Source: Bacteroidaceae bacterium (GTDB lineage: Bacteria > Bacteroidota > Bacteroidia > Bacteroidales > Bacteroidaceae). Taken from it: a DNA stretch of 54,187 nt. Positions 8,494 to 53,828 of this stretch are shown here, one piece after another; position 1 is the first letter of the stretch, and each line of letters begins with the position of its first letter. The notes beneath the pieces were generated by a model. The model searched no databases. It was not told the origin of the DNA and saw only the letters and a program-made list of their open reading frames with translations. Position numbers and translations under genes: made by a program. The stretch covers positions 1 through 54,187 of the forward strand of contig JAFRQD010000003.1 of assembly GCA_017428785.1 (NCBI GenBank), written 5' to 3'.

Positions 8494-8524
8494 TTTGAAT
8501 TGTGGAATAATTGTCGTACCTTTG
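8494..8524 (+). promoter_or_regulatory. Bacteroidetes promoter for the large secreted protein gene
   Basis: TTTG at 8494-8497 and TACCTTTG at 8517-8524 are separated by 19 nt, a good fit to the Bacteroidetes sigma consensus. The ATG follows at 8547. Confidence 0.85.
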
Positions 8525-8546
8525 CCCCCGACTAAAACTAAAACAC

Positions 8547-29600: not shown

Positions 29601-31840
29601 ATGACGCCGCACCTGCAGACAAACCAGTGCTGCGTGAGGCTGTGCCTTGCCACGTCGAAGCTGTGAACGTGGTTCGGCTCCACCTTCGGGATGACTTCGC
29701 TGATTGCAAAGGAGCAGTCCCTACATACCTGTTCGCGCAAGCCTGTCTCGTCGGAGGTGGCAGGCTTTACGAGTGTCCAGTCGTTGAAGCGGTGCTTGGA
29801 GGTTCTCAGCATTTCGTCACACTCACCGACGCAGTAGTAGCCATGAGTCTCAGCGTCAATCTCCCCGTACCATCCCCACGTGTGCTGCGCCTTGACGTAG
29901 GCCACATTAGAGGTGACGGTGCCCTTGTCGTTAGAAACTTCACACTTGATTTGGCGACGGGGATTGGTGTAGCATTCTACAACATCAACCGCAACCTTCA
30001 GTGTGGCAGTCTCATCGCTTCCATCGACACCTTCTGCCTCATTCCATGTTGCTCCGCCGTCCCATGAGTCATACCACTGGTAGGACAAGTCTTTGCCACT
30101 GGCGTACACCTTGAAGGTAGCGTAGCGTGTGAGTATTCCGCCTGCAGCTTCCGCCCGTGGGCCTTCATCTTCGCTCACCTTGCCAGTGTAGTCGGTCGGA
30201 TGTGTGATGATGTAGGGCTTGCCGTCGGAGGTGGCCTCTACGTATGGAATGGAGACGATGTCTATGTTATAGTTGCAGACTGTGCAGCTGACCTGAGCCG
30301 TGCCGTTCGTGCGGGTGCTTGGGTTGGGTGCAACCAGAATGACGGGTGCTCCCTCGGTGTGGATAGCCTTGTCGATGGCTTTGCCGCAGTCGATGCAGAC
30401 ATGCCAGTGTGCGTTCCCGTCTTTGCTCCATGCCGTGCTCACGTCGGGGTGTTCGCAGCCTTCGTCGTGCTGGCAGAACTCGAGGCATTGGTCGTCTTCG
30501 TAGCACCAGTGCTCGGCGAAGTCGTCGCTCTCGATGCAGAAGTCGTGTTCGCATCCCTTCTCGGAGATGTTGTCATGGCAGCAGTCTAAGCAGAGCTCGC
30601 AGACGTCGCATTGGTCGTCGCCTTCATAGCAGTCGCCGCACTGCTCACAGATGAAGTGGTCGCCCTGGTCGTCGCTCTCGGGGCAGAAGCCGTGTTCGCA
30701 GTGTTCCCAGCAGTTCTCGCATAGGCCGCAGAACTCGCAGAGCTCGCTGTCTTCGAAGCAGTCGCCGCAGTCGGGACAGACGTGTGCTTCCCAGTCAGAG
30801 CCGTCGGGGCAGAGACCGTGCTCGCAATGATGGTCAGCTTGGCAGTCGAGGCACAGGCCGCAGTACTCGCACTCTTCGTCCTGCGGGCATTGTCCGCACC
30901 CGGGACAGAGATGGTCTTCGAAGTCATAGGATGCGATGCAGTAGCCGTGGTCGCAGCCGCTCGACTCGCTGAAATCGTGGCAGCAGTCCTCGCAGAGTCC
31001 GCAGTCGTCGCACAGGCTGATGCCGAGGCTCTCGATACACTTGCCGCACAGTTCGCATTTCCAGTCGTTATCGATGCAGCAGAAGTTGCAGTGTTGTCCG
31101 CCGTAATCGCAGAACTGGATATCTCCATCGAAGCAGTGGCCGCATTCGGAACAATGCGTCTCGCCGCTGGCACAGCTTTCGCAGAGTCCGCACACCTCGC
31201 AGACGTCCTCGTCGCAGTGGAGGCACAGTCGGCAGTGGATGTCGTCTTCGGCCGCTGCGGCCTCCATACATTCGTTGCAGATGGCGTGTTCAACGCAGGC
31301 GTCGCCTACGACGTCCAGTTCCTCTCCTGCCACAATCATGCAGTTGCCGCATATTTCGCAGGCCAATTCGGTGCAGTCTGTACAGTGTAGTTTGAGATTA
31401 CCCATTTCACATGTACATTCTGTTACGTCTGCGCCGAACAGTTCATGGCAAAATTCGCACACATCGTCTGCTCCTTCGGAAAGCACGTCAAAGCAGTCGT
31501 TGCAGATGCGGTCTCCGTACTTGTTGTACCAGCCTTCGTGGTAATCGCCATCAGAGATGCAACCGTAGCAGACCAGGCAATGGCGTTCATTAAAGCAATC
31601 AAGGTTCACGTCTTCAATACATGAGCCGCAACCTTCGCAGAAGAATTCTGCGGCAATCTCTTCTGCGTCGGAAGTGTGCTCGGCATAGAAGGTGTACTCC
31701 TCGCCGCACTCGTCGCAGATAGCTACGGCTTCGTTCCATGTGTCGGTCCAGTGCCACTCCCAGGCATGGACTCTGAGCAGTGGGAACAACATTATGGCCA
31801 GCGCCATAATCATTCTCATTGTGGTGTGATACGTTTTCAT
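26669..31840 (-). CDS. Giant secreted cysteine-rich repeat protein
   Basis: I do not recognise a named family for this 1,723-residue protein. A signal peptide (MIMALAIMLFPLLRVHA) is followed by an extraordinary block, about residues 42-462, with about 80 cysteines, many as C-x2-C-x2-C. From about residue 277 it forms 4-5 repeats of about 42-46 residues with the pattern CxxCGLCxxC...CEHGxC...HxCxxCGDC. Next come Ig-like regions and several weak repeats of the type HxF/W...C..CG (ICSACGYYKTV, CADCHEILVEGA), a BIg2-like domain (YKSSDESVARVDALTGTPTI), a carbohydrate-reading beta-rich region, and the Prevotella tail YNLAGQRVGKDYKGIVIEGG. Metal binding or a disulfide-stabilised surface stalk are guesses. 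It is a single-gene transcript. Confidence 0.85.
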   Translation of the reverse strand: MKTYHTTMRMIMALAIMLFPLLRVHAWEWHWTDTWNEAVAICDECGEEYTFYAEHTSDAEEIAAEFFCEGCGSCIEDVNLDCFNERHCLVCYGCISDGDYHEGWYNKYGDRICNDCFDVLSEGADDVCEFCHELFGADVTECTCEMGNLKLHCTDCTELACEICGNCMIVAGEELDVVGDACVEHAICNECMEAAAAEDDIHCRLCLHCDEDVCEVCGLCESCASGETHCSECGHCFDGDIQFCDYGGQHCNFCCIDNDWKCELCGKCIESLGISLCDDCGLCEDCCHDFSESSGCDHGYCIASYDFEDHLCPGCGQCPQDEECEYCGLCLDCQADHHCEHGLCPDGSDWEAHVCPDCGDCFEDSELCEFCGLCENCWEHCEHGFCPESDDQGDHFICEQCGDCYEGDDQCDVCELCLDCCHDNISEKGCEHDFCIESDDFAEHWCYEDDQCLEFCQHDEGCEHPDVSTAWSKDGNAHWHVCIDCGKAIDKAIHTEGAPVILVAPNPSTRTNGTAQVSCTVCNYNIDIVSIPYVEATSDGKPYIITHPTDYTGKVSEDEGPRAEAAGGILTRYATFKVYASGKDLSYQWYDSWDGGATWNEAEGVDGSDETATLKVAVDVVECYTNPRRQIKCEVSNDKGTVTSNVAYVKAQHTWGWYGEIDAETHGYYCVGECDEMLRTSKHRFNDWTLVKPATSDETGLREQVCRDCSFAISEVIPKVEPNHVHSFDVARHSLTQHWFVCRCGVIGPDPKEDHNFNETEVVTEPTEKRMGESNLICSACGYYKTVKTDKLPHVHDYYSINDEDMFITKNGKYVPDPQKCKRGPLSHSFKCKGCDEWEIENHTWEMWLCARVPKSADEPGRMVRHCQTCYYEETKFFPYGSYPVMIEGGTADRDYAKAGDIVTIQYNPESARKMYYTGGGPVKFVMWNDVVDYLGDIYSTIDWGSGYIELPRLTFMQPTTSTATFRMKNGPAAIFAVTEECDHTGGTIMSGRVEPTCNSHGHEPHTLCADCHEILVEGATIPALGHDLPSTPNPGTEIVEYCTTIWNGRPAKPNDAKYGFEGYYTCRRCNENVKGKRTPLKHGCYHYGTGVVTYDWDGVGEIYTTCTKDGYTGDAYCGYCGKLVYKGDIVHHPGHKWGEWETIREATTKIKGMERHTCIYCDAEETRVTDYSGPDYTIKPDKSTIRFEWVFGEEPPSQTITFRSIGRNKVHAITKLNYSSYADNFFDYTFNNMSVTITPKPVTYSIRCGVSELDEVEIVQKVLTDEGEVVLRETPWFTIFRKVNKTPEKYTLTVEDGLAATATPDEYGYLPPKQNSSWSKKLLVRGGQVIMPEPEEEWQDDFLRWEIVGNNKGLEHVQNSSDKNAFFIMPCHDVTIRAVYKKKAASMAFSEKIVRAGMGTVLNTPKLQKSPGNIAVTYKSSDESVARVDALTGTPTILREGSATIIATFAGNAHYTSARTTYLLTTSRDELVAYDLAVSGVGVYNINKHDILGDGKVRYNPMTQTLTLDNAYINTTEIGVEANMGTMKVELLGSNTIIANDNTYGMNIRKTADTDNVTFYGGGSLYIRANLRALQTTANLVLTDGVSITAEGIDEENSYGFRGQRSGSMLLPTLTMKGSETMLRVKGGWGSFAYFEDISLNDGIQIIEPVGAFYAEKFGVVNNDHIVAGEWVTFARQDYIDGIESLTPTLSDDEGTYNLAGQRVGKDYKGIVIEGGKKTLRK

Positions 31841-40808: not shown

Positions 40809-42215
40809 TTACTGACGGGTTTCTTTCAGTTGTCGGTTGATGTCTGTCATGCGTTCGGCTGTCAAGGGATAAAAGTGACAGGTGAGAATGGCAATGAGAG
40901 CGACGGCGGCAGGAATGAAGGACATGAGCATACGGAGGCAAAGGAGTGCAGATTCAGGTTGGGAGATGACAACCTGATTGACCAATTGTTCATCGGTACG
41001 CGGCATGTAGCCACAGGCAGAGAGAAGCCATAGAACGGCAGCACCGCCAATGGCTCCGCCAAACTTCTGCGCCATAGAACTGGAAGAGAAGATGAGGCCT
41101 GTGGAGGCTGTCTTGTATCGCAACTCAGCATAGTCGCTTACATCGGCATACATCGACCATACGAGGGGCGACATCACACCCGTGAGCATGCTGATGAGAA
41201 CTTGGAAAAGGAGCATAATCCAAAAGCCGACAGGCGAGACAGGAATGAAGAAGAAGCCGATGCTCAGCACCAAGAGGACGGCATTGACGACCATAAACAG
41301 CGGTTTCTTGCCGAGGCGACGAGCGAGGGGAACGGTGCAGGCCACGCCTATCATGTTCGACACTTCGCCTACACTAAGGAACAGACCGGCATAGAAAAGA
41401 AGTGAAAAGTGAAAAGTGAAAAGTGACAAATCAATTGTGGTGTCGAAGCCGATGATGTCGGCAAAGTAATAGGCGACTGTAGCGCCTCGAACCGTACAGA
41501 AGAGATTAAAGCAAAGGGCGGCACCGATGAGCAACCACCAGGGGCGATTGGAGAGGAGCGAACGGAAGTCCTTGCCGATGCTGACCGAGGAAATAGTCTT
41601 TAGGCGCTCGCGTGTCAAAGCAAAGGTGAGCAGGAAGAGCACGAAGCAAGCAGCGGCAATCACCATCATGGCGTGCTGCCAGGCCGTTGTGACAGAAGCA
41701 TCGCTCTTAAAGAAATTCACCAAAGGTTCCCATGCAGCCAAGGCGATGAACGAGCCGCCATAGGCAAAGAACATGCGGAAGGAGGAAAAGACGGTCTTTT
41801 CCTGCGAGTCGTCGGTCATCACGCCCAGCATGGCGCCGTATGGCACGTTGATGGCCGTGTAGATGGTCATCATCAGGATATAAGTGATGTAGGCGTAGAT
41901 GAGTTTGGCGCCATATTCCCAGTCGGGTGTTGTGAAGAGCAGGATGCCTGCAATGCTGAACAACGGCGCCACAAACAACAGGTAAGGCCGATACTTGCCC
42001 CAGCGCGTCTGCGTGCGGTCGGCGATGATGCCCATCATGGGGTCGCTGACGGCATCCCAGATGCGAGTGACAAGTACCAACACGCCGGCATCTACAAGGC
42101 TCAGCCCGAAGATGTTGGAGTAGAAGAAAGGCAGGTAATACGAGAACACCTTCCAGAACATCGACGACGACATATCGCCGAAGCCGTAACCTATTTTTTC
42201 ACTTAAGTGTGCCAT
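40809..42215 (-). CDS. GPH-family sugar:cation symporter
   Basis: This 468-residue, twelve-helix transporter belongs to the glycoside-pentoside-hexuronide (MelB-like) group: [50 protein letters not shown] and [14 protein letters not shown]. In Bacteroides mannan loci the equivalent gene imports mannobiose/mannosylglucose through the inner membrane. It is the last gene of the mannan cluster and overlaps the GH130 gene by 17 nt. Residues 262-274 ([13 protein letters not shown]) are encoded by a 7-nt microsatellite (AAAAGTG, 41401-41425) that is normally intergenic in such genomes. Confidence 0.93.
41401..41425. repeat. AAAAGTG microsatellite inside the symporter gene
   Basis: Nearly four copies of the 7-nt unit lie inside the GPH symporter gene. 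Because 7 is not a multiple of 3, any change in copy number by one unit would shift the frame. Confidence 0.8.
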
Positions 42216-43365
42216 GATTCTTGCGGATGAGTTTCTTGATGGTTTTCACGCTTGCTCCCGTCGTCAGCCTGTCTTCGGGCGTGTTCATGCAATAGTCGAT
42301 GAGGCGGTCGAGCGAACTGACTGCCACATGCAGACGTGTGTCGGCTGTTGCATAATAGATGAGGACGCGTCCGTTGTCGTCGAGAATCCAGCCGTTGGAA
42401 AATGCCACATTCATCACATCGCCCACATATTCCTCTCCCTCGGGCACCAGGAACCAGCCCCCGGGTTTGGCTATGACGCGTGTGGGGTCGTCGAGAGCCG
42501 TCATATACATATATAATACATAGCGAAGGCCGTCGGCAGTTCCGCGTACGCCATGAGCCAGATGCAACCAGCCCTTCGGTGTCTTCAGCGGAGCCGGTCC
42601 CTCGCCGTTCTTCACCTCCTGAATGGTGTGGTAGTGTCGCGGATTGATGATAATCTCCTCCTTGACCTCTGCATGAGCGATGTCGTCCACCAAAGCCCAA
42701 CCTATGCCTCCGCCGCTTCCCGTGTCGATGAATCCGTCTTGAGGGCGCGTGTAGAAGGCATATTTGCCGTCCACAAACTCGGGATGAAGCACGACATTGC
42801 GTTGCTGGCTGCGGCTTTTGAGGTCAGGCAGGCGTTCCCACTTGATGAGATCTTTCGTGCGTGCGATAGCGGCAGTGGCAGTTGCGGCACTGAGGTTGCC
42901 GGGCTGCGAGTCGTCGTGACGCTCGGCACAGAACACGCCGTATATCCATCCGTCTTCGTGCTGCGTGACGCGCATGTCGTAGATGTTGGTGGCAGGGATG
43001 ACGTCTTCAGGCATCGTGATGGGTTCGTCCCAGAAGCGGAAGCCGTCGATGCCGTTGGAACTCTCTGCTACGGCGAAGAACGACTTGCGGTCGGCACCTT
43101 CCACACGACACACCAGCAGGTATCGTCCGTCGAGTTTGATGGCGCCGGCATTCAGCACGGCATTCATCATGATGCGCTGCATCAGGTAGGGATTGTCCTT
43201 CTCGCAGAAGTCATAGCGCCACTCTAAAGGCGTGTGCTCTGCCGTCAGTATGGGGTGTTGATACTTCTCATAAATGCCATTGCCCCAAGGCTGAGGCTCA
43301 TTCTTGAGGGAGAGTAACTCTTCGTGTCGTTCGAACAGCTGTTTCTTTCGTAATTCGTAAGTCAT
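42199..43365 (-). CDS. 4-O-beta-D-mannosyl-D-glucose phosphorylase (GH130)
   Basis: In the mannan pathway this cytoplasmic enzyme phosphorolyses Man-beta-1,4-Glc to mannose 1-phosphate and glucose. The 388-residue protein carries [29 protein letters not shown] with the probable catalytic D130, and [18 protein letters not shown], matching the subfamily GH130_1 that includes the Bacteroides fragilis enzyme. It has no signal peptide, as expected. It lies 20 nt after the GH36 gene and overlaps the symporter gene, so transport and phosphorolysis are probably translationally coupled. Confidence 0.95.
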
Positions 43366-43385: not shown

Positions 43386-45569
43386 TCAATCTTCAATAAT
43401 AAACACACGGCTGGCGTATTCCTCTCGGAGGGAAACTTCAAGGCCGACCTCCATGAGGAAGCGGCCCGTGAACCGCTTGCCTGAGAGCGCACAGGGCTTC
43501 TGGCCTACGCGCACGTTCTTTTCCGTCAGGGTGTATGTGGCATCGGGGTTGAGCCCTGCCAAACGGATGCGGGGAAGCGGCTGGTCGTAGTAGTTGGCAA
43601 TCTTATAGACGAACAGCACCGCCTTCCGACGCGCATCGTCGGTGTACATCAGCGAGGAGACGCCCTTCCCGTCGTAAGGTGAGATGAGACGATAGAGGTT
43701 GCCTGTCTGCACGACCTCGCGCAGCTGTTTGTAGTCGGCCATGCAGGTGGATGTCTGCTTGCGCTCCTCATCGGTCATGTCCTTTGGCTGCAACTCGATG
43801 CCGAGACGTCCCGACATAGCGACATCACAGCGGAACTTGATGGGAATGACCCTGCCGCCCGTGTTCCAGTAGGGGCAATGGTTGATGTGGCAGGCCATGG
43901 CATTGGCGGGGAAGAAGAGCGACGTGCCCCATTGGATGAAGACGCGCTGCAGGGCATCGGTGTTGTCGGAAGTCCAGAACTCGTCGAAGTACGGCAGTAA
44001 GCCATAGTTGGCACGTCCGCCGCCAGATGCGCAATCCTGGATGACGACGTCGGGGTACTTGGCTCGGATGCGCTGGAGGGTCTTGAGCAAACCAAGGTGG
44101 TAATCGACATAAAGGTTCTGCTGTCTGTTCTTGGGTAGATAGAGCGAACCGTAGTTCTGGATGGAGGCGTTGGCATCCCATTTGATGTAGGCTATCTCGG
44201 GGTTCTGCGTGAGCAGGTCATCCACTATCTTGAATACGAAGTCCTGTACCTCGGGATTGGTCATGTCGAGCACCAGTTGCGTGCCTCCACGCCCCAGTTT
44301 CAGGTCGCGCCCTTTTGTCTGCAAGGCCCACTCAGGGTGCCGCTCAAAGAGTTCGCTTTTCGTGTTCACCATCTCAGGCTCTATCCAGATGCCGAACTTG
44401 ATGCCGCGCTCGCGGGCAGCCTTCGTCAGCGCACCGAGTCCGTTTGGCAGTTTGTTCTTGTCCACCACCCAGTCGCCCAGGCTGGAGGTGTCGTCCTTGC
44501 GCGGATACTTATCGCCGAACCAACCGTCGTCCATGACGAACAGCTCGCCGCCGAACTGGCTGATGTCGTCCATCATGGCAATCATGCGCGCCTCGTCGAT
44601 GTTGAAGTAAAGGCCTTCCCACGAGTTGAGGAGGATGTCGCCCGTCTTCATCCCGCGGTGCAACATGCCTTCTGTGCGAGCCCAGCGGTGGAAGTTGCGA
44701 CTGGCACCGCTCAAGCCTTCATTGGAAAAGGTGAGGGCAAGATGCGGCGTCTCGAACGTTTGCTTCGGGTCGAGAATGTATTCGCTGGATTGCGGGTCGA
44801 TGCCGGCATAGAAATGGTGTTCCTTGTGCGATATCGTATTGAAGCGAAGTTCGAAGTTGCCGCTCCAGCAGAGCGCAGCACCCACTACGCGACCACTGTT
44901 CTCCTGTGGACGTCCGTCGAGGGAAACCATCACCTCGGGCGCATCGAGATGAGCGTTTCGGGTGCCGTCTGTGTTGCGGATGGTCTTGACGCCGCCTGTC
45001 AGAGGCTCTGATGTGGGTTCCGTCTCTGCTGCCCAATTGCCGTGCATGTGCGTTATCCACACATCACCTTGGCGCAAAACCAGATGCCCCGAATCGTAAC
45101 GCTTTAGGGTGACGGGCTTCTTCTCGGCGTTCTCTATCTCTGTCCACGTCTCGATGATGTCCACCCCAGTGTATGCCTTGTAGAAGACCTTGACGGTGAC
45201 GGGCTGCAACTTGTCCTGCATGGTGAAGACGTGCGTCTTCGCAGCATCCTCCGTTTTCAGTTCATAACGCTCTACTTTCAGTTCAAGGTTCAGGTCGCCG
45301 TCGGCATGAAGCACCTGCAGAGCGGGCAGCTGCACCATGTCCACCGTACCGAAAGCAGGCAGAGCCGACGAGCCCAGATTGGCACCGGCATCGCGCAGCT
45401 CCTGCAGACTGACGCCACGCGAACCATAATATGCCATGCGCAGGTCGCCGCCCTCATGAGCATACAGAACTAGCACAGTGTTTGGCGTCTCTATGGTCAC
45501 ATCGCCACTCCATGCGTTGGCACTTAATGTTCCCAGCAGTGGGAGCAAAAACATAATGAATCTTTTCAT
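43386..45569 (-). CDS. Secreted alpha-galactosidase (GH36)
   Basis: This 727-residue enzyme removes alpha-linked galactose from oligo- and polysaccharides such as galactomannan. It has a signal peptide (FIMFLLPLLGTLSANA), an N-terminal beta-sandwich, the (beta/alpha)8 barrel with nucleophile D465 in YIKWDAN and acid/base D535 in FWTSDNTDA, and the substrate-binding FVMDDGWFGDKY, FGIWIEPEMV and IQDCASGGGRANYG. A C-terminal beta-domain follows. It is part of the mannan cluster, where it would debranch side chains before or after mannanase cleavage. Confidence 0.95.
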   Translation of the reverse strand: MKRFIMFLLPLLGTLSANAWSGDVTIETPNTVLVLYAHEGGDLRMAYYGSRGVSLQELRDAGANLGSSALPAFGTVDMVQLPALQVLHADGDLNLELKVERYELKTEDAAKTHVFTMQDKLQPVTVKVFYKAYTGVDIIETWTEIENAEKKPVTLKRYDSGHLVLRQGDVWITHMHGNWAAETEPTSEPLTGGVKTIRNTDGTRNAHLDAPEVMVSLDGRPQENSGRVVGAALCWSGNFELRFNTISHKEHHFYAGIDPQSSEYILDPKQTFETPHLALTFSNEGLSGASRNFHRWARTEGMLHRGMKTGDILLNSWEGLYFNIDEARMIAMMDDISQFGGELFVMDDGWFGDKYPRKDDTSSLGDWVVDKNKLPNGLGALTKAARERGIKFGIWIEPEMVNTKSELFERHPEWALQTKGRDLKLGRGGTQLVLDMTNPEVQDFVFKIVDDLLTQNPEIAYIKWDANASIQNYGSLYLPKNRQQNLYVDYHLGLLKTLQRIRAKYPDVVIQDCASGGGRANYGLLPYFDEFWTSDNTDALQRVFIQWGTSLFFPANAMACHINHCPYWNTGGRVIPIKFRCDVAMSGRLGIELQPKDMTDEERKQTSTCMADYKQLREVVQTGNLYRLISPYDGKGVSSLMYTDDARRKAVLFVYKIANYYDQPLPRIRLAGLNPDATYTLTEKNVRVGQKPCALSGKRFTGRFLMEVGLEVSLREEYASRVFIIED

Positions 45570-45959: not shown

Positions 45960-48900
45960 TCAATCAACAATGTCTTTCAGCATCAATATTCGCTTGTCCT
46001 CTACCATCTTTCGGAAGTCGGGAGCGTCCTTGGTCGATGGCGCAGGCGCAAAGTACTGACGATGGTCGGCGTTGCGCCAGACGAGGAAGTAGCTGAGGGG
46101 GAACTTCTCGATTTGCGGTTTCAGCACGCGCGTCCACCAAGTCGGGTCGGGGAGGTTCTGATAGCCACATTCCGTGAGGGCGACCATGCGATTGGCCTTC
46201 TTGGCATAATTGCAAAGCCGGGTGAGGTCTTGCCCAAGCGTGTTGATGAAAGCCTCCTCGCCATTCCGCTGCTGATAAGCGTCAAGGCCGATGATGTCCA
46301 CGCGGTCGTCGCCAGGATAGGTGTCGAAGTCGTCGTCTTTCATGCCGTAGTTCGGACTCCAGCTCCATACGATGTTCGTGAGGCCATCGGCAAGCAGGCG
46401 GTCCTGCAAGCAGTTCCACAGCGCTTTGTATTCCTCTGCGGTGCAGAGTCCCTTGCCCCACCAGAACCAGCCGCCGTTGTTCTCGTGCCAAGGACGGAAG
46501 ATGAAAGGAACGGGCTGCCCCTGTTCGTCCTTCAACGACAGAAGGAAGGAGGAGAGGCGCTGCATCCATGTCTGGAACTTCTGGTGCTGACTGCTGCCTG
46601 GGAGGATGCTGCGGACGACGGTGGCGTTCTTGTTGTCCCACGCCGTGCCGCCCGTCAGCGGGTTGCGCGGATGCCACGAGATGGTGGCGATGCCGCCGCG
46701 ACGAACGTGGGCAAGCACTTCTTCCCTGATGCGGGCGAAGGGTACGCTGTCCAGGCTCTTCGCGTCGCCCATCTCGATTCCGCCAAGCTCGAAGCCCATC
46801 ACGGCGGGATAGTCGCCCTGGGTCGCCAAGACATCGGAATGTCCTCCGGCAGCAGAGCGGTCGTCCCAGTCAAGGCCATAGAAGGGGTCGTCCTGATGTC
46901 CGAACATGATGCCCCGCGTGCTGAGGCTTTTCAGACGCTGAAGCAGTGCCCCGCGTCCCGTGCTCAGCGAACTCGTCGGATATAGCGGCTGCAATGCAGG
47001 CACGGCGCTCGGCACAGCCTTTGTGCGGCTGAGGGGTGCTATCTTCAAGTTGTCGAAGTAGGGCGTGCTGACGCTGTGCTTGTGCAGGGGAGCGATGAGC
47101 CCGGCCATACCTTTCTTATAGTGGTCCGACGTGGCATTGAGGACTTCCTTGCCATCGACATAGCCTGTAATCTGGCTGCCGAGGAAACGCAGCTTGAGGT
47201 TATGCCATTGCAATGCGGCGATGTCGGGCACTTTTGTTGTGGCCAGCGTGTACTCGCCTCCTATTTCTACATCCTTACGTGCCAGGATGAGGGCTTGCTG
47301 CTCAGCATCGCCAATGAGTTCCTTCGGGTCGGGTTTCCCTCTGGAAAGGATGAGGGTACATGTGCCTTGATCGTCTATTTTCAGGTAGTATCCCTTGGCC
47401 CAGATGCCATAGCCAGAGCCCACATCGCAGAGTCGTCCCATCACGCCGGCCTCGTCGCCCGGATTGAGATAGATATCTGCGCTGACCTCATAATCGCGCC
47501 AGGCAGAGTCGCCGAGGATGGTGTAGTGATGCCATTCGGGTGCCCAGCTGAGAGTGTGTTCACCAACAGCCTGACGAATGCATTGGCCTTGACCTTCGGG
47601 ACGCGGCGTGAGTTCAAACGCTCCGATGAGGTCTGCCAGATAGTGCGGCAGATGGCCCCACTCGGAAGGATTCCTGTATTGCTCGAAGTTGTCCTCGTAT
47701 GGGATGGGGAAGGGCTTGGAGGCAGGAATGTCGGGGAACGAACCTTTCTGCTGACCTGTCATGGTGGAGAGGGAATAGACGGTGTTGGGCTCCAGGGTAA
47801 TGGTGAAGCGTCCGCTCTTCTGATTGATGTCCTGCTGCCTGACGAACTGTTCCTGGGCATTGCTTTTCCACACGCAGAGTGCCCTCCGGCTGAGTCCCTT
47901 TGGCAAGCGCACTTCCACGCTCTGTGCGCTCTTGGCATCCTTGGTCTCGAGGATGACGCTGTAGTCGTTGGTGGCGGGATTGCGCATCATAATCATGCTG
48001 CCTCCGCCTTCCAGCTTCATGCAACCCTGGTCGATGTACTGCCATCCCACGGCAGAGAACTGGCCGTAGTGGGCATAGCCCCACAGTGCCTCACGCAAAG
48101 CATAATGTCCGCTCCAGGGTTCACGGGCGAGCAGCATGGCGGGGTCTTGGCTATAGGGTTCCAAAGGATAGACGCCGGCGATGTCGTACCAATTGATAAT
48201 GCGTGTGGCCCCGCTGACGATGTAGTTCTCATTGAAGCACTTGACGATGCTGATGAGGCAGTTGAAGCCTTTAAGATAGACATGGTCTTCGCTGTTCCAG
48301 ATGTGCTTGCCCATGTCCTCAGCCATCTTGCGTTGTTCTGGCGTGAGTTGTATTTCGCTGTATGTGTGGGCACAGACGGCATCGAGGGCATCCCTTAGTT
48401 CCGTGTCCTCCTGCATCCGCTTCAGGAAGTCCATCTTCTGATTGCCCCAGTTGCCGAAGCCATGCAGCTTGACGTCCTTGAAGCCGCACTCGTTCATGGC
48501 TCGGCGCAAGTTCTTTGCGAATTCGGCGTTCCAGCCTTTCTCGTTGTGGCAACCCAGGGCATCCAGTTCCAGTCCATGCACATGCCGCAGTCCTTGCAGC
48601 CATGCGATGTAGTAGTCCACCATATCGTCGGACCAGAAGTTGCCTACCCAGGCAGGTGCGCTCCAAGCTGTGGCATCCAGTGCCAGCTGTGGATTGCGTT
48701 GCTTGGCCTCGCGCATCACCCACCAGATGTAGCCTCGCATAAAGTTGTTGTCGCCACGATAATGGCTGTGAGCGGGCATGGAGCCTTGTGTGCTGTTGCC
48801 GTCGCCAGGCACCTCTACGAGGATGGCACTGACGCTGGCCCCGAACATGGGCTTATAGACCATGTCCATGATTTGCGAGCGCTGTGGCTCGGGATAGTCC

Positions 48901-49055
48901 TTCAGCAGCACGGAGGTTGCACCGCCGCCGTTGACGGCTCCGATGCCATCAAAGCGTTTGCCCTGCTGCAGATTCGTAATGCGTATGGTTTGCACGGCAC
49001 TTGTGGCATTCATGGCCAGTGCCAATAGTAGGGTGAGGAGGGATAACTGTTTCAT
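45960..49055 (-). CDS. Secreted GH59-GH26 fusion: beta-galactosidase-like plus beta-mannanase
   Basis: After a signal peptide (MKQLSLLTLLLALAMNATSA), residues about 25-675 match galactocerebrosidase (GH59) along their length. They include RFDGIGAVNGGGATSVLL, FGASVSAILVEVPGDGNSTQ, the acid/base E172 in GCHNEKGWN, the nucleophile E256 in HIWNSEDH, REPWSGHYAL and a lectin-like domain ending YFDNLKI. Residues about 690-1020 are GH26 mannanase: RGIMFGHQDDPFYG, acid/base E858 in RPWHENNGGWFWWG and nucleophile E962 in ALTECGYQ. All four carboxylates are present, so both halves should work. GH59 enzymes cleave beta-galactosides; GH26 cuts beta-mannan. The fusion suggests that beta-galactose decorates the substrate. 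Confidence 0.93.
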   Translation of the reverse strand: MKQLSLLTLLLALAMNATSAVQTIRITNLQQGKRFDGIGAVNGGGATSVLLKDYPEPQRSQIMDMVYKPMFGASVSAILVEVPGDGNSTQGSMPAHSHYRGDNNFMRGYIWWVMREAKQRNPQLALDATAWSAPAWVGNFWSDDMVDYYIAWLQGLRHVHGLELDALGCHNEKGWNAEFAKNLRRAMNECGFKDVKLHGFGNWGNQKMDFLKRMQEDTELRDALDAVCAHTYSEIQLTPEQRKMAEDMGKHIWNSEDHVYLKGFNCLISIVKCFNENYIVSGATRIINWYDIAGVYPLEPYSQDPAMLLAREPWSGHYALREALWGYAHYGQFSAVGWQYIDQGCMKLEGGGSMIMMRNPATNDYSVILETKDAKSAQSVEVRLPKGLSRRALCVWKSNAQEQFVRQQDINQKSGRFTITLEPNTVYSLSTMTGQQKGSFPDIPASKPFPIPYEDNFEQYRNPSEWGHLPHYLADLIGAFELTPRPEGQGQCIRQAVGEHTLSWAPEWHHYTILGDSAWRDYEVSADIYLNPGDEAGVMGRLCDVGSGYGIWAKGYYLKIDDQGTCTLILSRGKPDPKELIGDAEQQALILARKDVEIGGEYTLATTKVPDIAALQWHNLKLRFLGSQITGYVDGKEVLNATSDHYKKGMAGLIAPLHKHSVSTPYFDNLKIAPLSRTKAVPSAVPALQPLYPTSSLSTGRGALLQRLKSLSTRGIMFGHQDDPFYGLDWDDRSAAGGHSDVLATQGDYPAVMGFELGGIEMGDAKSLDSVPFARIREEVLAHVRRGGIATISWHPRNPLTGGTAWDNKNATVVRSILPGSSQHQKFQTWMQRLSSFLLSLKDEQGQPVPFIFRPWHENNGGWFWWGKGLCTAEEYKALWNCLQDRLLADGLTNIVWSWSPNYGMKDDDFDTYPGDDRVDIIGLDAYQQRNGEEAFINTLGQDLTRLCNYAKKANRMVALTECGYQNLPDPTWWTRVLKPQIEKFPLSYFLVWRNADHRQYFAPAPSTKDAPDFRKMVEDKRILMLKDIVD

Positions 49056-49310: not shown

Positions 49311-51584
49311 TTATTTCAGGTAGTTGTCGATGAACGCCTCTCGCGGCTTGAGGTAGTGCTCGCGCCAATAGGAAGCGATGGGGCCCGAGGGCCAGGCATG
49401 GGTGCGGAAGGGCACACAGTTCACCGTCTTCTTGCCCGGCGCATTGTTGAGCGACGACCAGACGGCGGACGGCGGGCAGGTGGTGTCGATGAGGCCCATC
49501 TCGCAGTAGATCTCTGCCTGCGAGTGCCGGATGAGCAGGGCGCCGTCGAAGTAGGGCAGCGTGGCGTCGAGCTGTGCTGCGGAGAGGTTGGGATGGTTCT
49601 CGATAGGCTGCGGCCATCCGCTGCGACGCCCCTTGCGGGCACCGCCCAAGTCCTGCATGGCCGGCACATTGAGCACCACGCAGCTGACACGCGGGTCCAG
49701 TCCGGCAGCCGCTACTGCCTGGCCGCCTCCCTGACTTTCGCCGATGACGAGGATGCGGCGTCCGTCCCACTCGGGCTGGCGCGTCATGTATTCGATGGCA
49801 CGCAGGAGGCGCAGGTACATGCCGCGGAAATAATAGGTCTCGCGGTCGGCAGCGTTGTGTTCGTAGTAGTTACGCAGCAGTCCGCCTTCGAGCATCCGAT
49901 AATAGTCGTCGCTCTGGCCGTTGAGCATCCCGTGGGCATTGATGTCGAGGCTGAGGGCACCGTTTCCGAGGGCTGCGTTGCCCACGCACTCGCCCACCGA
50001 GCAGCGGCACCAGTTGCCACTGACACCTGCCGCACGGCAGAGGATGATGATGGGCAGCGACTTCTTCTTGGCTCCCGCAGGCTTGGCCATGTAGGCACGC
50101 ACAGGGGCGGGACCGAGACAATTGATTTCGACATCCTGACAGATGTACTTGCCCTGATACTGCTGCGGCACATCCAGCGTCGTCGTCTTCACCTGCATGG
50201 GCAGTGCCTTGAGCTGCTTCTTCAAATTGTCCCAATAGGGCATGAGGTCGGCCGGCTCCTCGTAGCCTGCACGGAAACCCTCAGGAGCCACCACATAGCC
50301 GATGGCCTCTGGTTTGCCCGTGCTCTCCTTGAGCTCCACACTCACGGCGCAAGTGCTGTCCAGCGCTTGCTCCAGCACGGTGAAGTCTGCCGAGGAAGGC
50401 AACAGACTGAACTCGCGACATACCTTATTATTATATAACACGCGCACGCGTAAGGAATCAAATGGCACGGGGTCAGCGTGACACGAGACGACAGCCCGTT
50501 CCCCCTTCTCATATATGCCGCTCTCCTTGTTGATGCTCAGCCGATAGGAGCCGGCGCGGTTCACCTCGTCGCGCGTCAGGATGAGCTCTTCATGTAGGAA
50601 CTGCCGCCAGAAGGCATCGTCGTTCTGCTGGCTGAAGACAAAGGGCACAGTCCAGGGCGCCACAAAGAGCCAGCGGGCATCGTCGTTCTCCATAGCCTGT
50701 GCGCTCGGCACGCAGTCGCACTCGGCCAGCGCCAGCATCTTCGTCGGATATTTGCGGCGCAGGATGTCGTACTGCTGCTTGAAGGAGCCGTGCTGCGACG
50801 GTGCGTGGTACTGGTCGCGGGCCACGATATCGACATACGCGTCGCCCGGGTACCAGTCATCGTCGTCGAGCTCAGATGTCCAGATGTATATGAGATTGTG
50901 CACGCCGCGCTCCATAAGATAGCGCTGCGTGTAGAGGTAAAGCTGCTTGAAGGCCTCGGCACCGTCGTTGCCCCACCAGAACCAAGCCTTGCCGCCACGG
51001 TTCGTGTTGCCTGCCGCCTCGTGGAAGGGACGCCACAGGATGGGGATGCCTTGCTGCTGATAGTGGAGCAGGTAACGGACAATGGTGTCGAGGTTCTCGT
51101 TGATGACGCGATGCTCGGGCGTGCCCTCCTGCACAGCCCTTCTTGCAGAGAAGAGTGTGCCCGGTCGGCGGCCTTCTGCTCCCGATGGCGTATAGAAGGC
51201 GAAGCCGTCCTTCGGCGACAGGTCGGCACTGACAGGGACGCTCCAGTGCCAGATGAAGCCCACGATGCCGCCTGCATCATGCCAGGCCTTGGCCGTCGGC
51301 CCCATGTAGTTGAGGTTGCGCTGGCGGAAGTGCTGGAAGTCGAAGATGTTGATGGCGGGATACTTGCCGACACGCTCATAGATGCCGTCTGCATCCGTCG
51401 TGTTGTAGTCCCATCGCGCCTGGCAGCCCGACAGCACCTGCTTGCCCCACACCTTGTCGCGCAGGTAGCGATAGAGTTGCCGCGTTGGTCCTGTCGCCTC
51501 GCGGTCGATGGGTTGCTCCTGAATCTGGGCTTGCATCGCTAAGGCCAAAAGGAGCAGGAGGAGAGAAAGAATGCTACGTTTCAT
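49311..51584 (-). CDS. Secreted GH26-CE7 fusion: beta-mannanase plus acetyl esterase
   Basis: This 757-residue protein starts with a signal peptide (ILSLLLLLLALAMQAQ). Residues about 30-345 are GH26 with acid/base E189 in WRPFHEAAGN and nucleophile E288 in ALAECD. A beta-rich linker leads to residues about 430-757, a CE7-type acetyl esterase with the nucleophile S617 in GESQGGGQA, D700 in GLIDTTCPPS and H729 in THAWPSGP. CE7 enzymes remove O-acetyl groups from xylan, cephalosporins and mannans. On one chain with a mannanase it suits acetylated glucomannan. The ATG lies 4 nt from a -7 box, so the mRNA may be leaderless. Confidence 0.92.
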   Translation of the reverse strand: MKRSILSLLLLLLALAMQAQIQEQPIDREATGPTRQLYRYLRDKVWGKQVLSGCQARWDYNTTDADGIYERVGKYPAINIFDFQHFRQRNLNYMGPTAKAWHDAGGIVGFIWHWSVPVSADLSPKDGFAFYTPSGAEGRRPGTLFSARRAVQEGTPEHRVINENLDTIVRYLLHYQQQGIPILWRPFHEAAGNTNRGGKAWFWWGNDGAEAFKQLYLYTQRYLMERGVHNLIYIWTSELDDDDWYPGDAYVDIVARDQYHAPSQHGSFKQQYDILRRKYPTKMLALAECDCVPSAQAMENDDARWLFVAPWTVPFVFSQQNDDAFWRQFLHEELILTRDEVNRAGSYRLSINKESGIYEKGERAVVSCHADPVPFDSLRVRVLYNNKVCREFSLLPSSADFTVLEQALDSTCAVSVELKESTGKPEAIGYVVAPEGFRAGYEEPADLMPYWDNLKKQLKALPMQVKTTTLDVPQQYQGKYICQDVEINCLGPAPVRAYMAKPAGAKKKSLPIIILCRAAGVSGNWCRCSVGECVGNAALGNGALSLDINAHGMLNGQSDDYYRMLEGGLLRNYYEHNAADRETYYFRGMYLRLLRAIEYMTRQPEWDGRRILVIGESQGGGQAVAAAGLDPRVSCVVLNVPAMQDLGGARKGRRSGWPQPIENHPNLSAAQLDATLPYFDGALLIRHSQAEIYCEMGLIDTTCPPSAVWSSLNNAPGKKTVNCVPFRTHAWPSGPIASYWREHYLKPREAFIDNYLK

Positions 51585-51652: not shown

Positions 51653-52552
51653 TCAAATGATAAGTTTCTTCTTGTTGAAGTTCTCGCGGAACTCTGTAGG
51701 GGTACATCCTTTATGCTTGCGGAACAGGCGATTGAAGTTGGAGAGTGTGTTGAAGCCGGAGTCGTAGCATATTTCTGCAGCCGTCATGGTGGTGTCTATC
51801 AGCATTCGTGAAGCATAGCCCAGGCGTATCTCGATGATATAGTCCGACAGGGTGCGGCCCGTTCGCTGGTGGAAGAAGCGGGAAAAGGCGACTGGTGTCA
51901 TTCCGACCAGCTCTGCAATCTGCTCCAGACGCACCTCTTCGCGGAAATGTGCCGCTATGTACTGCTGCACTTTGCCAACGCGGCGGCTCTCGCTGCTTGT
52001 CTTGATGCGTGCAAACGAGGAGCTGGAGAGGGTGCGACTGTCGTCGGCGAGAGACAGGTCGTAAAGCAGTTCAAGGAAACTCAGCACCGCATGGAAGCCG
52101 TGTTGCTGGCGTGTCAGCTCGTCTAATCTCCCATATATCTTCATAATGGTGAGCCCGGAGAAGGCGAGGCCCAGGCGGGCACGCTCCAGCATCTGACGGA
52201 TGGAATGGAACTGGTTCTTGTTGAGCAGGCTCTCGGGCAGCACGTCGGAGGTGAACTGTATGGTTATCTCCCTGATGTCCCTGCTATGGCAATCCCCTTG
52301 TTCCCATACGTGTTCCAGGTTGGGGCTGGTGATGAGAACCAAGTCATACTCCCCGATCGTTTCACTGTTATCCCCTACTGTACGCCGCACTCCGGCTGCG
52401 CCCGCGATAAAGTTGAGCTCAAACTCGGGATGGCTATGGACGGGGAAATCGAATGATGACTTGTGGCGGTCGGCCAGATAGAAGCAGTCGCTGTCCGACA
52501 GCGGCGTTATCTCTCGCATCACAGGTGCTGAGGTGAAGTCTTGTTGAGTCAT
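51653..52552 (-). CDS. AraC-family transcriptional regulator of the mannan cluster
   Basis: The 299-residue protein has an N-terminal cupin-like sensor (FDFPVHSHPEFELNFIAGAA) and two C-terminal helix-turn-helix motifs (VRLEQIAELVGMTPVAFSRF; AAEICYDSGFNTLSNFNRLF). It should bind a sugar-derived inducer and activate transcription. It lies 19 nt after the epimerase gene and before the GH26-CE7 gene, so this cluster's enzymes are its likely targets; a classical hybrid two-component sensor or SusR-like regulator is not present in the window. Confidence 0.93.
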   Translation of the reverse strand: MTQQDFTSAPVMREITPLSDSDCFYLADRHKSSFDFPVHSHPEFELNFIAGAAGVRRTVGDNSETIGEYDLVLITSPNLEHVWEQGDCHSRDIREITIQFTSDVLPESLLNKNQFHSIRQMLERARLGLAFSGLTIMKIYGRLDELTRQQHGFHAVLSFLELLYDLSLADDSRTLSSSSFARIKTSSESRRVGKVQQYIAAHFREEVRLEQIAELVGMTPVAFSRFFHQRTGRTLSDYIIEIRLGYASRMLIDTTMTAAEICYDSGFNTLSNFNRLFRKHKGCTPTEFRENFNKKKLII

Positions 52553-52571: not shown

Positions 52572-53828
52572 TCAGAGCATGGTGTCGATGCGCTCTATGA
52601 GTTCCATGCACATACGCCCATTGTGGTAAGGGCATTTCCAGAAGCCGGCATGGTCGTCGTCGAGGTTCACGCTTCCGTCCTCGCGAATGCTCCAGTGCCA
52701 TTCGCCGTGCTCGTGGTCGATGAGGCGGTTCTTGATGTACTCCCACAGTCGCAAAGCCTTGTGCAATGCCATCTCGTCGCCGAAATGCTGGTAGAGATTG
52801 AAGAACCCCACGACGGCTTCAGCCTGCACCCACCAGTGGCGGTCGCGGTCGAAATGCGTCCCGTCGGGCTCTCCCTCGTAAATCATTGAGCCGTCGGGCT
52901 GCAATCCCTTCTCGCTTGCCTGCGCCATCTCTCTTACTACGGGCTCCACCTTATTCAATATAGCATTGTCTCCAAGCACATGCGCAGCCTCGTGCAGCAG
53001 CCACGAACATTCTATGTCGTGGCCGTAGCTTTCGGTAGTGCTGCGGCGCGTCCAGTCCATGTCGAAGAAGAGGTCGAGGTGATGTGTTTGGGGGTTAAGG
53101 ATGTGGTCGGTGAAAAGGGAAAGCAGGCGTTTGACTGCCGCTGAGACTTTTCTGGCATCCTCGCTTTCCGGGTTTGTTTCGTGTAACAGACGAAGCAGGT
53201 TGGTATAGGGCTCAATGATGTGCAGGTGCGTGTTCTGGCTCTTTGGATAGTTCTCGTCCTTGTCAGAGAGGCGCATGTCCGCGATGGGTTGCCAGTCGCG
53301 AGTGCAGGCCTCGATGTAGCCTCCGTAACCGTTGTCCCAGGCGTGACGCTCGATGATGTCGAAGAGCTGGACGGCAATCTGCAGGGCCTCCTCGTCGCCT
53401 GCCAGCCGCGCGTATTCCGAAAAGCCATAGAGCATGAAGCCCTGAGCGTAGAATTGTTTCTTGGTATCAAGAGGCTGTCCGTCTGCCGTCACGCTCCAAT
53501 AGACGCCCCCATGCTCGCGGTCCATGAAATGGGCGAGGACATAGTCTTTCGTCATTCGCGCCGCCTCAAGACAAGCGCTGTCGCCAAGCACATGGCAGGC
53601 GGCACTGAAGGTCCACAGCAAACGGGCATAGAGGATGGCACCGCGTGGGGCTTCCTCCTCTGTCAAGCCCATTCCCGTCATCCGCCCATACCAGCCGCCG
53701 CGTTTCGTGTCAAGCATATTGTTGAGCCAGAACGGCAGGATGTTTTGTGCGAGGCATTCGCGGACTTCATGGCACAGCGTGCGCAACATGGTCTCATTTG
53801 AAAGAAAAAGGTGACTCTTTGCAGGCAT
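52572..53828 (-). CDS. Cellobiose 2-epimerase
   Basis: This 418-residue enzyme of the AGE (N-acylglucosamine 2-epimerase) family converts the reducing-end glucose or mannose of beta-1,4-linked disaccharides, in mannan use Man-Man to Man-Glc for the phosphorylase. It has the (alpha/alpha)6 hallmarks RGAILYARLLWTFSAACHVL, AQGFMLYGFSEYARL, the catalytic histidines in THLHIIEPY, SYGHDIECSWLLHEAA and RHWWVQAEAVVGF. It has no signal peptide. It heads the operon, with a promoter 30 nt upstream. Confidence 0.95.
   Translation of the reverse strand: MPAKSHLFLSNETMLRTLCHEVRECLAQNILPFWLNNMLDTKRGGWYGRMTGMGLTEEEAPRGAILYARLLWTFSAACHVLGDSACLEAARMTKDYVLAHFMDREHGGVYWSVTADGQPLDTKKQFYAQGFMLYGFSEYARLAGDEEALQIAVQLFDIIERHAWDNGYGGYIEACTRDWQPIADMRLSDKDENYPKSQNTHLHIIEPYTNLLRLLHETNPESEDARKVSAAVKRLLSLFTDHILNPQTHHLDLFFDMDWTRRSTTESYGHDIECSWLLHEAAHVLGDNAILNKVEPVVREMAQASEKGLQPDGSMIYEGEPDGTHFDRDRHWWVQAEAVVGFFNLYQHFGDEMALHKALRLWEYIKNRLIDHEHGEWHWSIREDGSVNLDDDHAGFWKCPYHNGRMCMELIERIDTML

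What the first reader, a model, noticed from the sequence alone, without database searches (positions are those of the whole stretch)
45960..49055. GH59 galactocerebrosidase-type domain fused to a GH26 mannanase
GH59 is best known from animal lysosomal galactocerebrosidase, and a fusion to a mannan-cutting enzyme is not one I know. The bacterial half keeps the acid/base (NEK, E172) and nucleophile (NSED, E256) and the lectin-like domain, so it seems functional. Directly downstream is a GH36 alpha-galactosidase. The combination fits side chains of beta-Gal on alpha-Gal, as in beta-galactoglucomannan of eudicot primary walls: GH59 trims beta-Gal, GH36 removes alpha-Gal, GH26 cuts the backbone, then GH130 and the epimerase finish. 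The hypothesis is inference, but every needed activity is encoded in this cluster.
Basis: partly seen in the sequence, partly recalled or inferred. Interest (0 to 1): 0.85.

Follow-up and report, generated by a model that had tools for sequence, protein, structure and literature searches.

The report
Galactosidase fused to mannan-cutting enzyme
Gut bacteria, many of them from ruminants, carry an enzyme that joins a relative of the human Krabbe-disease galactosidase to a mannan-cutting enzyme, and its gene neighbourhood suggests that it uncaps the galactose side chains of a fibre in fruit and vegetable cell walls.

Summary
Window 49055-45960 (-) encodes 1031 aa: signal-peptide-like start, GH59 (barrel, sandwich, lectin-like domain) and GH26. 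The operon also has a GH26-CE7 fusion, GH36, a mannosylglucose-phosphorylase-like GH130, a GPH symporter and a cellobiose-2-epimerase-like protein. The GH26 half resembles the mannobiohydrolase BoMan26A, not an endo-mannanase.

Of 80 GH59 loci from other genomes, 48 have GH26 in or near them: 22 with the same fusion, 3 with a reversed GH26-GH59 fusion built from the locus's other GH26 type. In six, the same mannobiohydrolase is fused to GH27 alpha-galactosidase and GH59 stands apart near by. Most galactose-contact residues of GALC are invariant; both halves are under purifying selection.

Best reading: a periplasmic enzyme that removes beta-galactose caps so that alpha-galactosidase and the attached mannobiohydrolase can act. 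Eudicot beta-galactoglucomannan is the best-matching known substrate; substrate and linkage are inferred. 'Every needed activity is encoded' is overstated. No paper on the fusion was found in the searches made here.

The parts
46986..49055 (-). N-terminal half of the fusion, residues 1-690: signal-peptide-like start (about residues 1-20), GH59 barrel 35-332, sandwich and lectin-like domain to about 675; acid/base E172, nucleophile E256
   Evidence: Pfam; GALC alignment; residues invariant or nearly so in 80 rows. Signal peptide judged by eye.
45960..46985 (-). C-terminal half of the fusion, residues 691-1031: linker and GH26 domain of BoMan26A (mannobiohydrolase) type; acid/base E858, nucleophile E962, loop-2 residue D769
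43386..45569 (-). GH36 alpha-galactosidase
   Evidence: Pfam; PDB 4fnq alpha-galactosidase 8e-114; an NCBIfam beta-L-arabinopyranosidase match is far below its cut-off
42199..43365 (-). GH130, mannosylglucose phosphorylase type
   Evidence: Pfam; PDB 3was 4-O-beta-D-mannosyl-D-glucose phosphorylase 2e-195
40809..42215 (-). GPH-family sugar symporter
   Evidence: Pfam MFS_2; NCBIfam TIGR00792 above its cut-off
49311..51584 (-). GH26 fused to CE7 (acetyl esterase); the GH26 is the second type, closest to 6d2x/6d2w and then 6hf2
51653..52552 (-). AraC-family regulator
52572..53828 (-). Cellobiose 2-epimerase-like protein (AGE family)
   Evidence: Pfam; PDB 3wkf and other cellobiose 2-epimerases; NCBIfam EpiA 375 bits, below its cut-off of 800

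Best explanation
A secreted, probably periplasmic, two-enzyme protein for beta-galactose-capped galactoglucomannan. The GH59 half is a retaining exo-beta-galactosidase that removes a terminal beta-galactose, most likely the one beta-1,2-linked to the alpha-1,6-galactose side chain as in eudicot beta-galactoglucomannan (beta-GGM). That exposes the alpha-galactose to GH36 (GH27 in many relatives); CE7 removes acetyl groups. The fused GH26 half, a BoMan26A-like mannobiohydrolase that galactose substituents hold back, then trims the cleared chain to disaccharides, which the symporter imports and the epimerase and GH130 process. Shown here by sequence: domains, catalytic residues, gene context, repeated fusion, purifying selection. 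Inferred: substrate, linkage, cellular location and order of action.
For: GH59 and GH26 both complete with catalytic residues. GALC galactose-contact residues W135, G48, T93, and N181, E258, W524 (passages of PMC4445328) correspond to W131, G44, T89, N171, E256, W504, kept in 79 or 80 of 80 rows (the one miss is a gap; G48=G44 read by hand). Neighbours form a mannan pathway. 48 of 80 named GH59 loci have GH26; 23 of 32 well-flanked ones also have alpha-galactosidase. Two fusion designs in opposite order with different GH26 types, plus GH27 fused to the same mannobiohydrolase beside unfused GH59. dN/dS 0.10-0.14 for the GH59 half and 0.07-0.13 for the GH26 half. In beta-GGM, beta-Gal-capped oligosaccharides resisted alpha-galactosidase until beta-galactosidase had acted (PMC9614514, passages). 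BoMan26A is restricted by galactosyl substituents and proposed to act in the periplasm after GH36 (PMC5217682, abstract and passages).
Against: No activity data. BoMan26A, the characterised relative of the GH26 half, did not hydrolyse galactoglucomannan in PMC5217682; only BoMan26B did. GALC contacts S261 and R380 are not conserved (V259; position 381/383 variable). GH59 also sits in other loci: 6 of 80 with GH115/GH98 and 21 of 80 other. Most genomes with a BoMan26A-type GH26 lack a strong GH59 (61 of 81). No GH94 was found for a glucose-ended disaccharide. SusC/SusD were seen in relatives (L106, L100) but not in the window.
Confidence: 0.6

Rival explanations
1. The GH59 is a general plant-wall exo-beta-galactosidase (xyloglucan, arabinogalactan, pectic galactan or complex xylan side chains) joined to the mannan operon because these polymers occur together, not because the mannan carries beta-Gal.
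For: Related GH59 genes lie beside GH115 in 6 of 80 loci (4 of them also with GH98) and in 21 of 80 other contexts; L107 is an esterase-GH59 fusion. Xyloglucan also carries beta-1,2-Gal (PMC9614514, passage).
Against: Fusion to GH26 in two orders and the pairing with alpha-galactosidase, epimerase and GH130 point to action on the same molecule as the mannobiohydrolase.
Confidence: 0.22
2. The GH59 keeps a lipid role: with GH36/GH27 it strips plant galactolipids (DGDG: alpha-Gal-1,6-beta-Gal-diacylglycerol; MGDG), which are plentiful in forage.
For: GH59 is the galactosylceramidase family (PMC5764952, passages). Alpha- and beta-galactosidase pairing would suit DGDG, and GH27 stands near GH59 in 5 of 20 well-flanked loci without GH26. 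Galactolipid structure recalled.
Against: Fusion with GH26 and co-location with epimerase and GH130 do not fit a lipid; GALC needs saposin A to reach its lipid (PMC5764952, passages).
Confidence: 0.06
3. The GH59 acts on a mannan side chain but with another sugar specificity (for example alpha-L-arabinopyranoside or beta-D-fucoside).
For: GALC contacts S261 and R380 are not conserved, so the sugar pocket is not identical.
Against: W131, G44, T89, whose GALC equivalents bind the 3-, 4- and 6-OH of galactose, are kept in 79 of 80 rows.
Confidence: 0.08
4. The GH59 half is a passenger without function, or the association with mannan is chance.
For: Some relatives are interrupted: a stop inside the GH26 half in L040/L094 and only a GH26 fragment before GH59 in L051/L115.
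Against: Catalytic residues invariant and dN/dS about 0.1; GH26 in 48 of 80 loci against roughly 3% expected per 20 kb from 4 GH26 genes in 2.98 Mb (hand estimate).
Confidence: 0.03

Closest known systems
Galactocerebrosidase GALC (GH59; PDB 3zr5/4ccc)
   Same: Same family and domain order (barrel, sandwich, lectin-like domain), same catalytic Glu pair, most galactose contacts kept.
   Different: Bacterial, fused to GH26, in a mannan operon; S261 and R380 not conserved; no sign of a lipid context.
BoMan26A of the Bacteroides ovatus galactomannan PUL (GH26; PDB 4zxo), with CjMan26C
   Same: Closest solved relative of the GH26 half; catalytic residues, H795, H857, W863, Y927, W993 and loop-2 D769 match; GH36, phosphorylase and epimerase are likewise in the locus.
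   Different: BoMan26A is described as a separate protein; here a GH59 is attached, and BoMan26A did not cut galactoglucomannan.
Segatella copri GH26|GH5_4 enzyme and glucomannan PUL 7
   Same: A bimodular GH26 enzyme in a glucomannan PUL with GH130, CE7 and an epimerase (PMC12704710, passages).
   Different: Partner domain is a backbone-cutting GH5_4 and the enzyme is predicted surface-bound; 'GH59' does not occur in the paper's main text.
Bacteroides cellulosilyticus mannan locus (CE7/CE25)
   Same: GH26A/B, GH130_1, CE7, MFS and GH3 set (PMC13276840, passages).
   Different: 'GH59' does not occur in the paper's main text; its GH36 lies outside the locus.
Bxy_22780, beta-1,2-galactosidase of Bacteroides xylanisolvens
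   Same: Gut Bacteroides exo-beta-galactosidase for a beta-1,2 linkage.
   Different: Family GH35, in a cluster with GH144; 'mannan' and 'GH26' do not occur in the paper's main text (PMC11739564, passages).

Membership tests
GH59 | Full-length match to the GH59 catalytic profile above the curated cut-off | tested here: met
   279 bits against a cut-off of 27, all 294 positions
GH59 | Catalytic acid/base and nucleophile glutamates | tested here: met
   E172 in 79 of 80 rows (one gap), E256 in 80 of 80; aligned with GALC E182/E258
GH59 | Sandwich and lectin-like domains behind the barrel | tested here: met
   GH59_C partial 477-542, 3keto-disac_hyd 515-672; W504 aligned with lectin-domain W524 of GALC. 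GH59M is below its cut-off.
GH59 | Beta-galactosidase activity | not testable with these tools
   Contact residues mostly kept; S261 and R380 not
Galactosylceramidase (GALC function) | Hydrolysis of galactosylceramide with a saposin | not testable with these tools
   The plant-polysaccharide gene context speaks against it
GH26 | GH26 profile match with both catalytic glutamates | tested here: met
   136 bits against a cut-off of 20.2; E858, E962, invariant in 20 fusion rows
GH26 mannobiohydrolase (BoMan26A/CjMan26C type) | Loop 2 closing the cleft beyond subsite -2, and mannobiose as main product | tested here: inconclusive
   Loop-2 region aligns without gaps and D769 matches D99; loop 8 differs by two residues in length; product not testable here
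Bacteroidota mannan utilisation locus | GH26, mannosylglucose phosphorylase, epimerase, sugar transporter and alpha-galactosidase together | tested here: met
Bacteroidota mannan utilisation locus | SusC/SusD pair | tested here: not met
   Not among the window proteins scanned; the contig ends 359 bases past the epimerase gene. Present in relatives L106 and L100. So the window is not filed as a complete PUL.
Beta-GGM degradation system | Beta-galactosidase acting on Gal-beta-1,2-Gal-alpha-1,6-Man | not testable with these tools
   Context only

The most novel reading that the evidence does not exclude
A branch of bacterial GH59 enzymes has become the dedicated beta-galactosidase of beta-galactoglucomannan breakdown: it uncaps Gal-beta-1,2-Gal-alpha-1,6 side chains and has been joined at least twice, in opposite orders, to two different types of GH26. 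This would be a plant-fibre role for a family known from sphingolipid degradation, and a bacterial system aimed at eudicot beta-GGM.
Probability: 0.5. Interest if true: 0.72.

Novelty: new variant of a known kind. Interest (0 to 1): 0.6.

Why it matters
Beta-galactoglucomannan was described in eudicot primary walls in 2022, with its oligosaccharides found in tomato, kiwi and apple fruit (PMC9614514, passages). No bacterial beta-galactosidase for it turned up in the searches made here. The fusion names a concrete candidate, points to a named isolate-type genome with a reversed version of it (Prevotella sp. P6B1, L106), and predicts an order of steps that can be tested in a tube. It would also give the bacterial branch of the Krabbe-disease enzyme family a role in plant-fibre digestion. 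The swapping of GH59, GH27, CE7 and two GH26 types is a good example of gene fusions that point to substrate structure.

Tried and rejected

A first neighbour survey used non-overlapping longest ORFs and missed genes lying opposite long antisense ORFs, for example the GH26 near GH59 in L047 and L086. It was replaced by a six-frame scan; counts are unless stated. Five of the 80 named loci (L071, L080, L102, L122, L131) are too short to judge and stay in the denominator of 80. The tree still carries the older labels and holds 79 of the 80 named loci plus the window: L097 was left out because the first scan found no GH59 ORF in it.

The label 'GH98-GH59 fusion' for L107 was wrong: Pfam shows an esterase domain before GH59. 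My GH98 seed had carried an esterase-like part and was trimmed.

'One origin of the mannan link' was considered and not claimed: the rows labelled mannan fall in one 62-row branch, but its SH-aLRT is only 81, and L047, a GH59 of the 55-58% identity group that is not in that tree, is also in a mannan locus. The tree needs at least 7 gains or losses of the GH59-GH26 label on starred branches, but three rows labelled 'single' there (L127, L129, L138) are cut by contig ends and the window's own GH59 is a mosaic, so these are not counted as independent fusions; only the reversed design is.

GH94 in the own genome: none found. Plasmids: one distant GH59 (32% identity, Kitasatospora). The other two GH26 genes of the genome: the one on C53 lies among GH20, GH127, GH92 and GH38 genes, not an obvious beta-mannan locus; the one on C55 was looked at only with my own profiles.

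Paper searches that gave no report of the fusion: GH59+GH26 (14 papers, listing only), GH59+galactosidase+polysaccharide utilization (4 papers, passages of one read), GH59 or its long names (89 papers, 40 listed), GH59+Prevotella (14, listing only), beta-GGM+Bacteroides (0), a six-term search (0). In the review PMC10492685 neither 'GH59' nor 'beta-galactosidase' occurs in the main text. Most subscription papers are outside this library.
Full report
OBSERVATION. Window 45960-49055, minus strand, is one ORF of 1031 aa. Pfam finds a full-length GH59 domain (residues 35-332), weaker matches to the GH59 lectin and central domains, and a GH26 domain (704-997). The best solved relatives are galactocerebrosidase for residues 32-539 and 4zxo (BoMan26A) for 702-1028. 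E172 and E256 align with the GALC catalytic pair, E858 and E962 with that of BoMan26A. The protein begins with a signal-peptide-like stretch without a lipobox cysteine (read by eye), so a periplasmic place is likely, as PMC5217682 proposes for BoMan26A and BoGal36A.

NEIGHBOURS. In order of transcription on the minus strand: cellobiose-2-epimerase-like protein (52572-53828), AraC regulator, GH26-CE7 fusion (49311-51584), GH59-GH26, GH36, GH130, GPH symporter. GH130 is closest to mannosylglucose phosphorylase 3was (2e-195), the epimerase to cellobiose 2-epimerases (its NCBIfam EpiA score is below that model's cut-off). The window is a whole contig that ends 359 bases beyond the epimerase gene, so a SusC/D pair or a surface mannanase farther out cannot be excluded. 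The GH26 domain of the GH26-CE7 gene is closest to 6d2x/6d2w and then to 6hf2 (that 6hf2 is the endo-acting BoMan26B is recalled).

HOW COMMON. Of 301 genomes of the same family, the own one included, 26 have a strong GH59 (E below 1e-70). Of 395 genomes drawn across the phylum, 3 have one at E 1e-30 or better: the own genome, one other of the family and one of another family. A scan of the named genome collection with the 23-row GH59 alignment confirmed 195 loci and returned the best 80, by their titles mostly uncultured Bacteroidaceae, Prevotellaceae or Bacteroidales, many from ruminants. The 80 are the nearest relatives of the window's GH59, so fractions among them are not fractions of all GH59.

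CONTEXT COUNTS (six-frame scan with profiles built, up to about 10 kb on each side). Of 80 named loci: 48 with GH26 (22 GH59-GH26, 3 GH26-GH59, 23 not seen fused, of which L127, L129 and L138 are cut by contig ends), 6 with GH115 (4 of them also GH98), 21 other, 5 too short. Of the 52 with at least 5 kb on both sides: 32 with GH26 (20 fused), 5 with GH115, 15 other. Of those 32: 23 have GH27 or GH36, 20 CE7, 21 the epimerase, 20 GH130; 19 of the 20 fused ones have a further GH26 frame. Of the other 20: 5 have GH27, none the epimerase or GH130. From 4 GH26 genes in 2.98 Mb a random 20-kb stretch would hold one in about 3% of cases (hand estimate).

FUSION DESIGNS. (1) GH59 then BoMan26A-type GH26, 68-94% identical to the window's GH26 half where the whole domain is present: 22 of 80 loci. 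(2) The other GH26 type, 66-68% identical to the GH26 domain of the window's GH26-CE7 gene, then GH59: L106 (Prevotella sp. P6B1), L110, L119. L106 has two SusD genes, a SusC-like gene, GH27 and a further GH26 around it. (3) GH27 then BoMan26A-type GH26, 63-70% identical to the window's, with a separate GH59 near by: L075, L076, L111, L118, L121, L138 (Pfam-confirmed in L048 and L052, which are the contigs of L075 and L076). (4) GH26 then CE7, as in the window. So one mannobiohydrolase is joined either to a beta-galactosidase-type or to an alpha-galactosidase-type domain, and a second GH26 either to an esterase or to the GH59. Designs 1 and 2 use different GH26 types in opposite orders and so arose separately. 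Such swapping is expected if all parts serve one substrate.

RESIDUES AND SELECTION. In 80 GH59 rows (79 named loci plus the window; L097 left out), G44, T89, W131, N171 and E172 are kept in 79 with one gap, E256 and W504 in 80, W289 and Y301 in 79. In GALC, W135, G48, T93, S261 and R380 bind the 3-, 4- and 6-OH, N181 and E258 bind the group at C2 in two ligands, and W524 shapes the pocket (PMC4445328, passages). S261 and R380 are not conserved here. Between the window and L128, L067 and L065, dN/dS is 0.10-0.14 for the GH59 half and 0.07-0.13 for the GH26 half, so both halves appear to be in use.

MECHANISM. Beta-GGM has an alternating Glc-Man backbone with beta-1,2-Gal-alpha-1,6-Gal side chains (PMC10735049, start of abstract; PMC9614514, passages). 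Capped oligosaccharides resisted alpha-galactosidase until beta-galactosidase had acted; the tool used was an Aspergillus niger GH35 enzyme. BoMan26A is a mannobiohydrolase restricted by galactose, proposed to act after GH36 in the periplasm. Putting GH59 on the same chain as such an enzyme places uncapping where GH36 and GH26 need it. With an alternating backbone the released disaccharide would be largely Glc-Man rather than Man-Man (inference); cellobiose 2-epimerases link Glc-Man with cellobiose (recalled). In S. copri a GH94 is proposed for that branch (PMC12704710, passages); here none was found in a genome 84% complete, a gap in the pathway. Some relatives have GH3 and an endoglucanase-like GH5 in the locus (L039/L069; others), which suits a backbone that contains glucose.

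AGAINST. BoMan26A did not attack galactoglucomannan. GH59 is not confined to mannan loci. The link of strong GH59 with BoMan26A-type GH26 over 301 genomes (20 of 26 against 61 of 275, Fisher p 3e-8) ignores kinship, and 61 of 81 genomes with that GH26 at E 1e-60 lack a strong GH59, so GH59 is an accessory. All 11 genomes, the own one included, whose GH26 is at least 60% identical to the window's do have a strong GH59. Substrate and linkage are unproven.

HISTORY. The window's GH59 is a patchwork: residues 1-100 are 96% identical to fusion L067; residues 251-450 are 52-78% identical to L067 but 78-98% to the unfused L062 and L063; the GH26 half is again 91-96% identical to L067. This suggests exchange of parts of GH59 between fused and unfused genes.

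VERDICT. A real, conserved and recurrent fusion with a well-supported link to mannan. The beta-GGM reading is the best available, with about even odds for its exact form. No mention of the fusion was found in the searches listed under Tried and rejected.

Noticed in passing
window 49311-51584 (-): Second fusion in the operon: GH26 joined to a CE7 esterase domain, kept in many related loci; its GH26 type is the one that is fused to GH59 in the reversed design.
   Followed up: partly
L048:12449-14680, L052:893-3199, also L075, L076, L111, L118, L121, L138: GH27 alpha-galactosidase fused to the BoMan26A-type GH26, with an unfused GH59 near by.
   Followed up: yes
L058:15660-19139, also L049, L052, L055, L056, L059, L060: A family of 976-1159 aa proteins in GH59-mannan loci; the two tested at L049 and L052 have no Pfam match, the one at L058 only a sub-threshold F5/8 type C match and weak PDB matches.
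   Followed up: partly
L058:5371-7233, also L055, L056, L059, L060: A family of 620-626 aa proteins next to GH59 in mannan loci without a Pfam match in the two tested and without a clear PDB relative.
   Followed up: partly
L107:9095-11965, and L099, L101, L105, L109, L134: GH59 genes in GH115-bearing loci (GH98 too in four of the six), one of them an esterase-GH59 fusion: GH59 seems to serve other plant-wall side chains as well.
   Followed up: partly
window 45960-49055 against L067, L062, L063: Patchwork of the GH59 half: some stretches match a fused relative, others unfused relatives.
   Followed up: partly
L040 / L094 and L051 / L115: Interrupted relatives: a TAG stop inside the GH26 half of a fusion, and a GH59 preceded only by a GH26 fragment. 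Described only.
   Followed up: no
window 26669-31840 (-): A 1723 aa protein whose only Pfam match is one Big_2 domain near residue 1400 and which has no NCBIfam match.
   Followed up: no
window 8511-11543 (+) and 8538-10235 (-): Long overlapping open frames on both strands; the 1010 aa plus-strand frame has no Pfam match.
   Followed up: no
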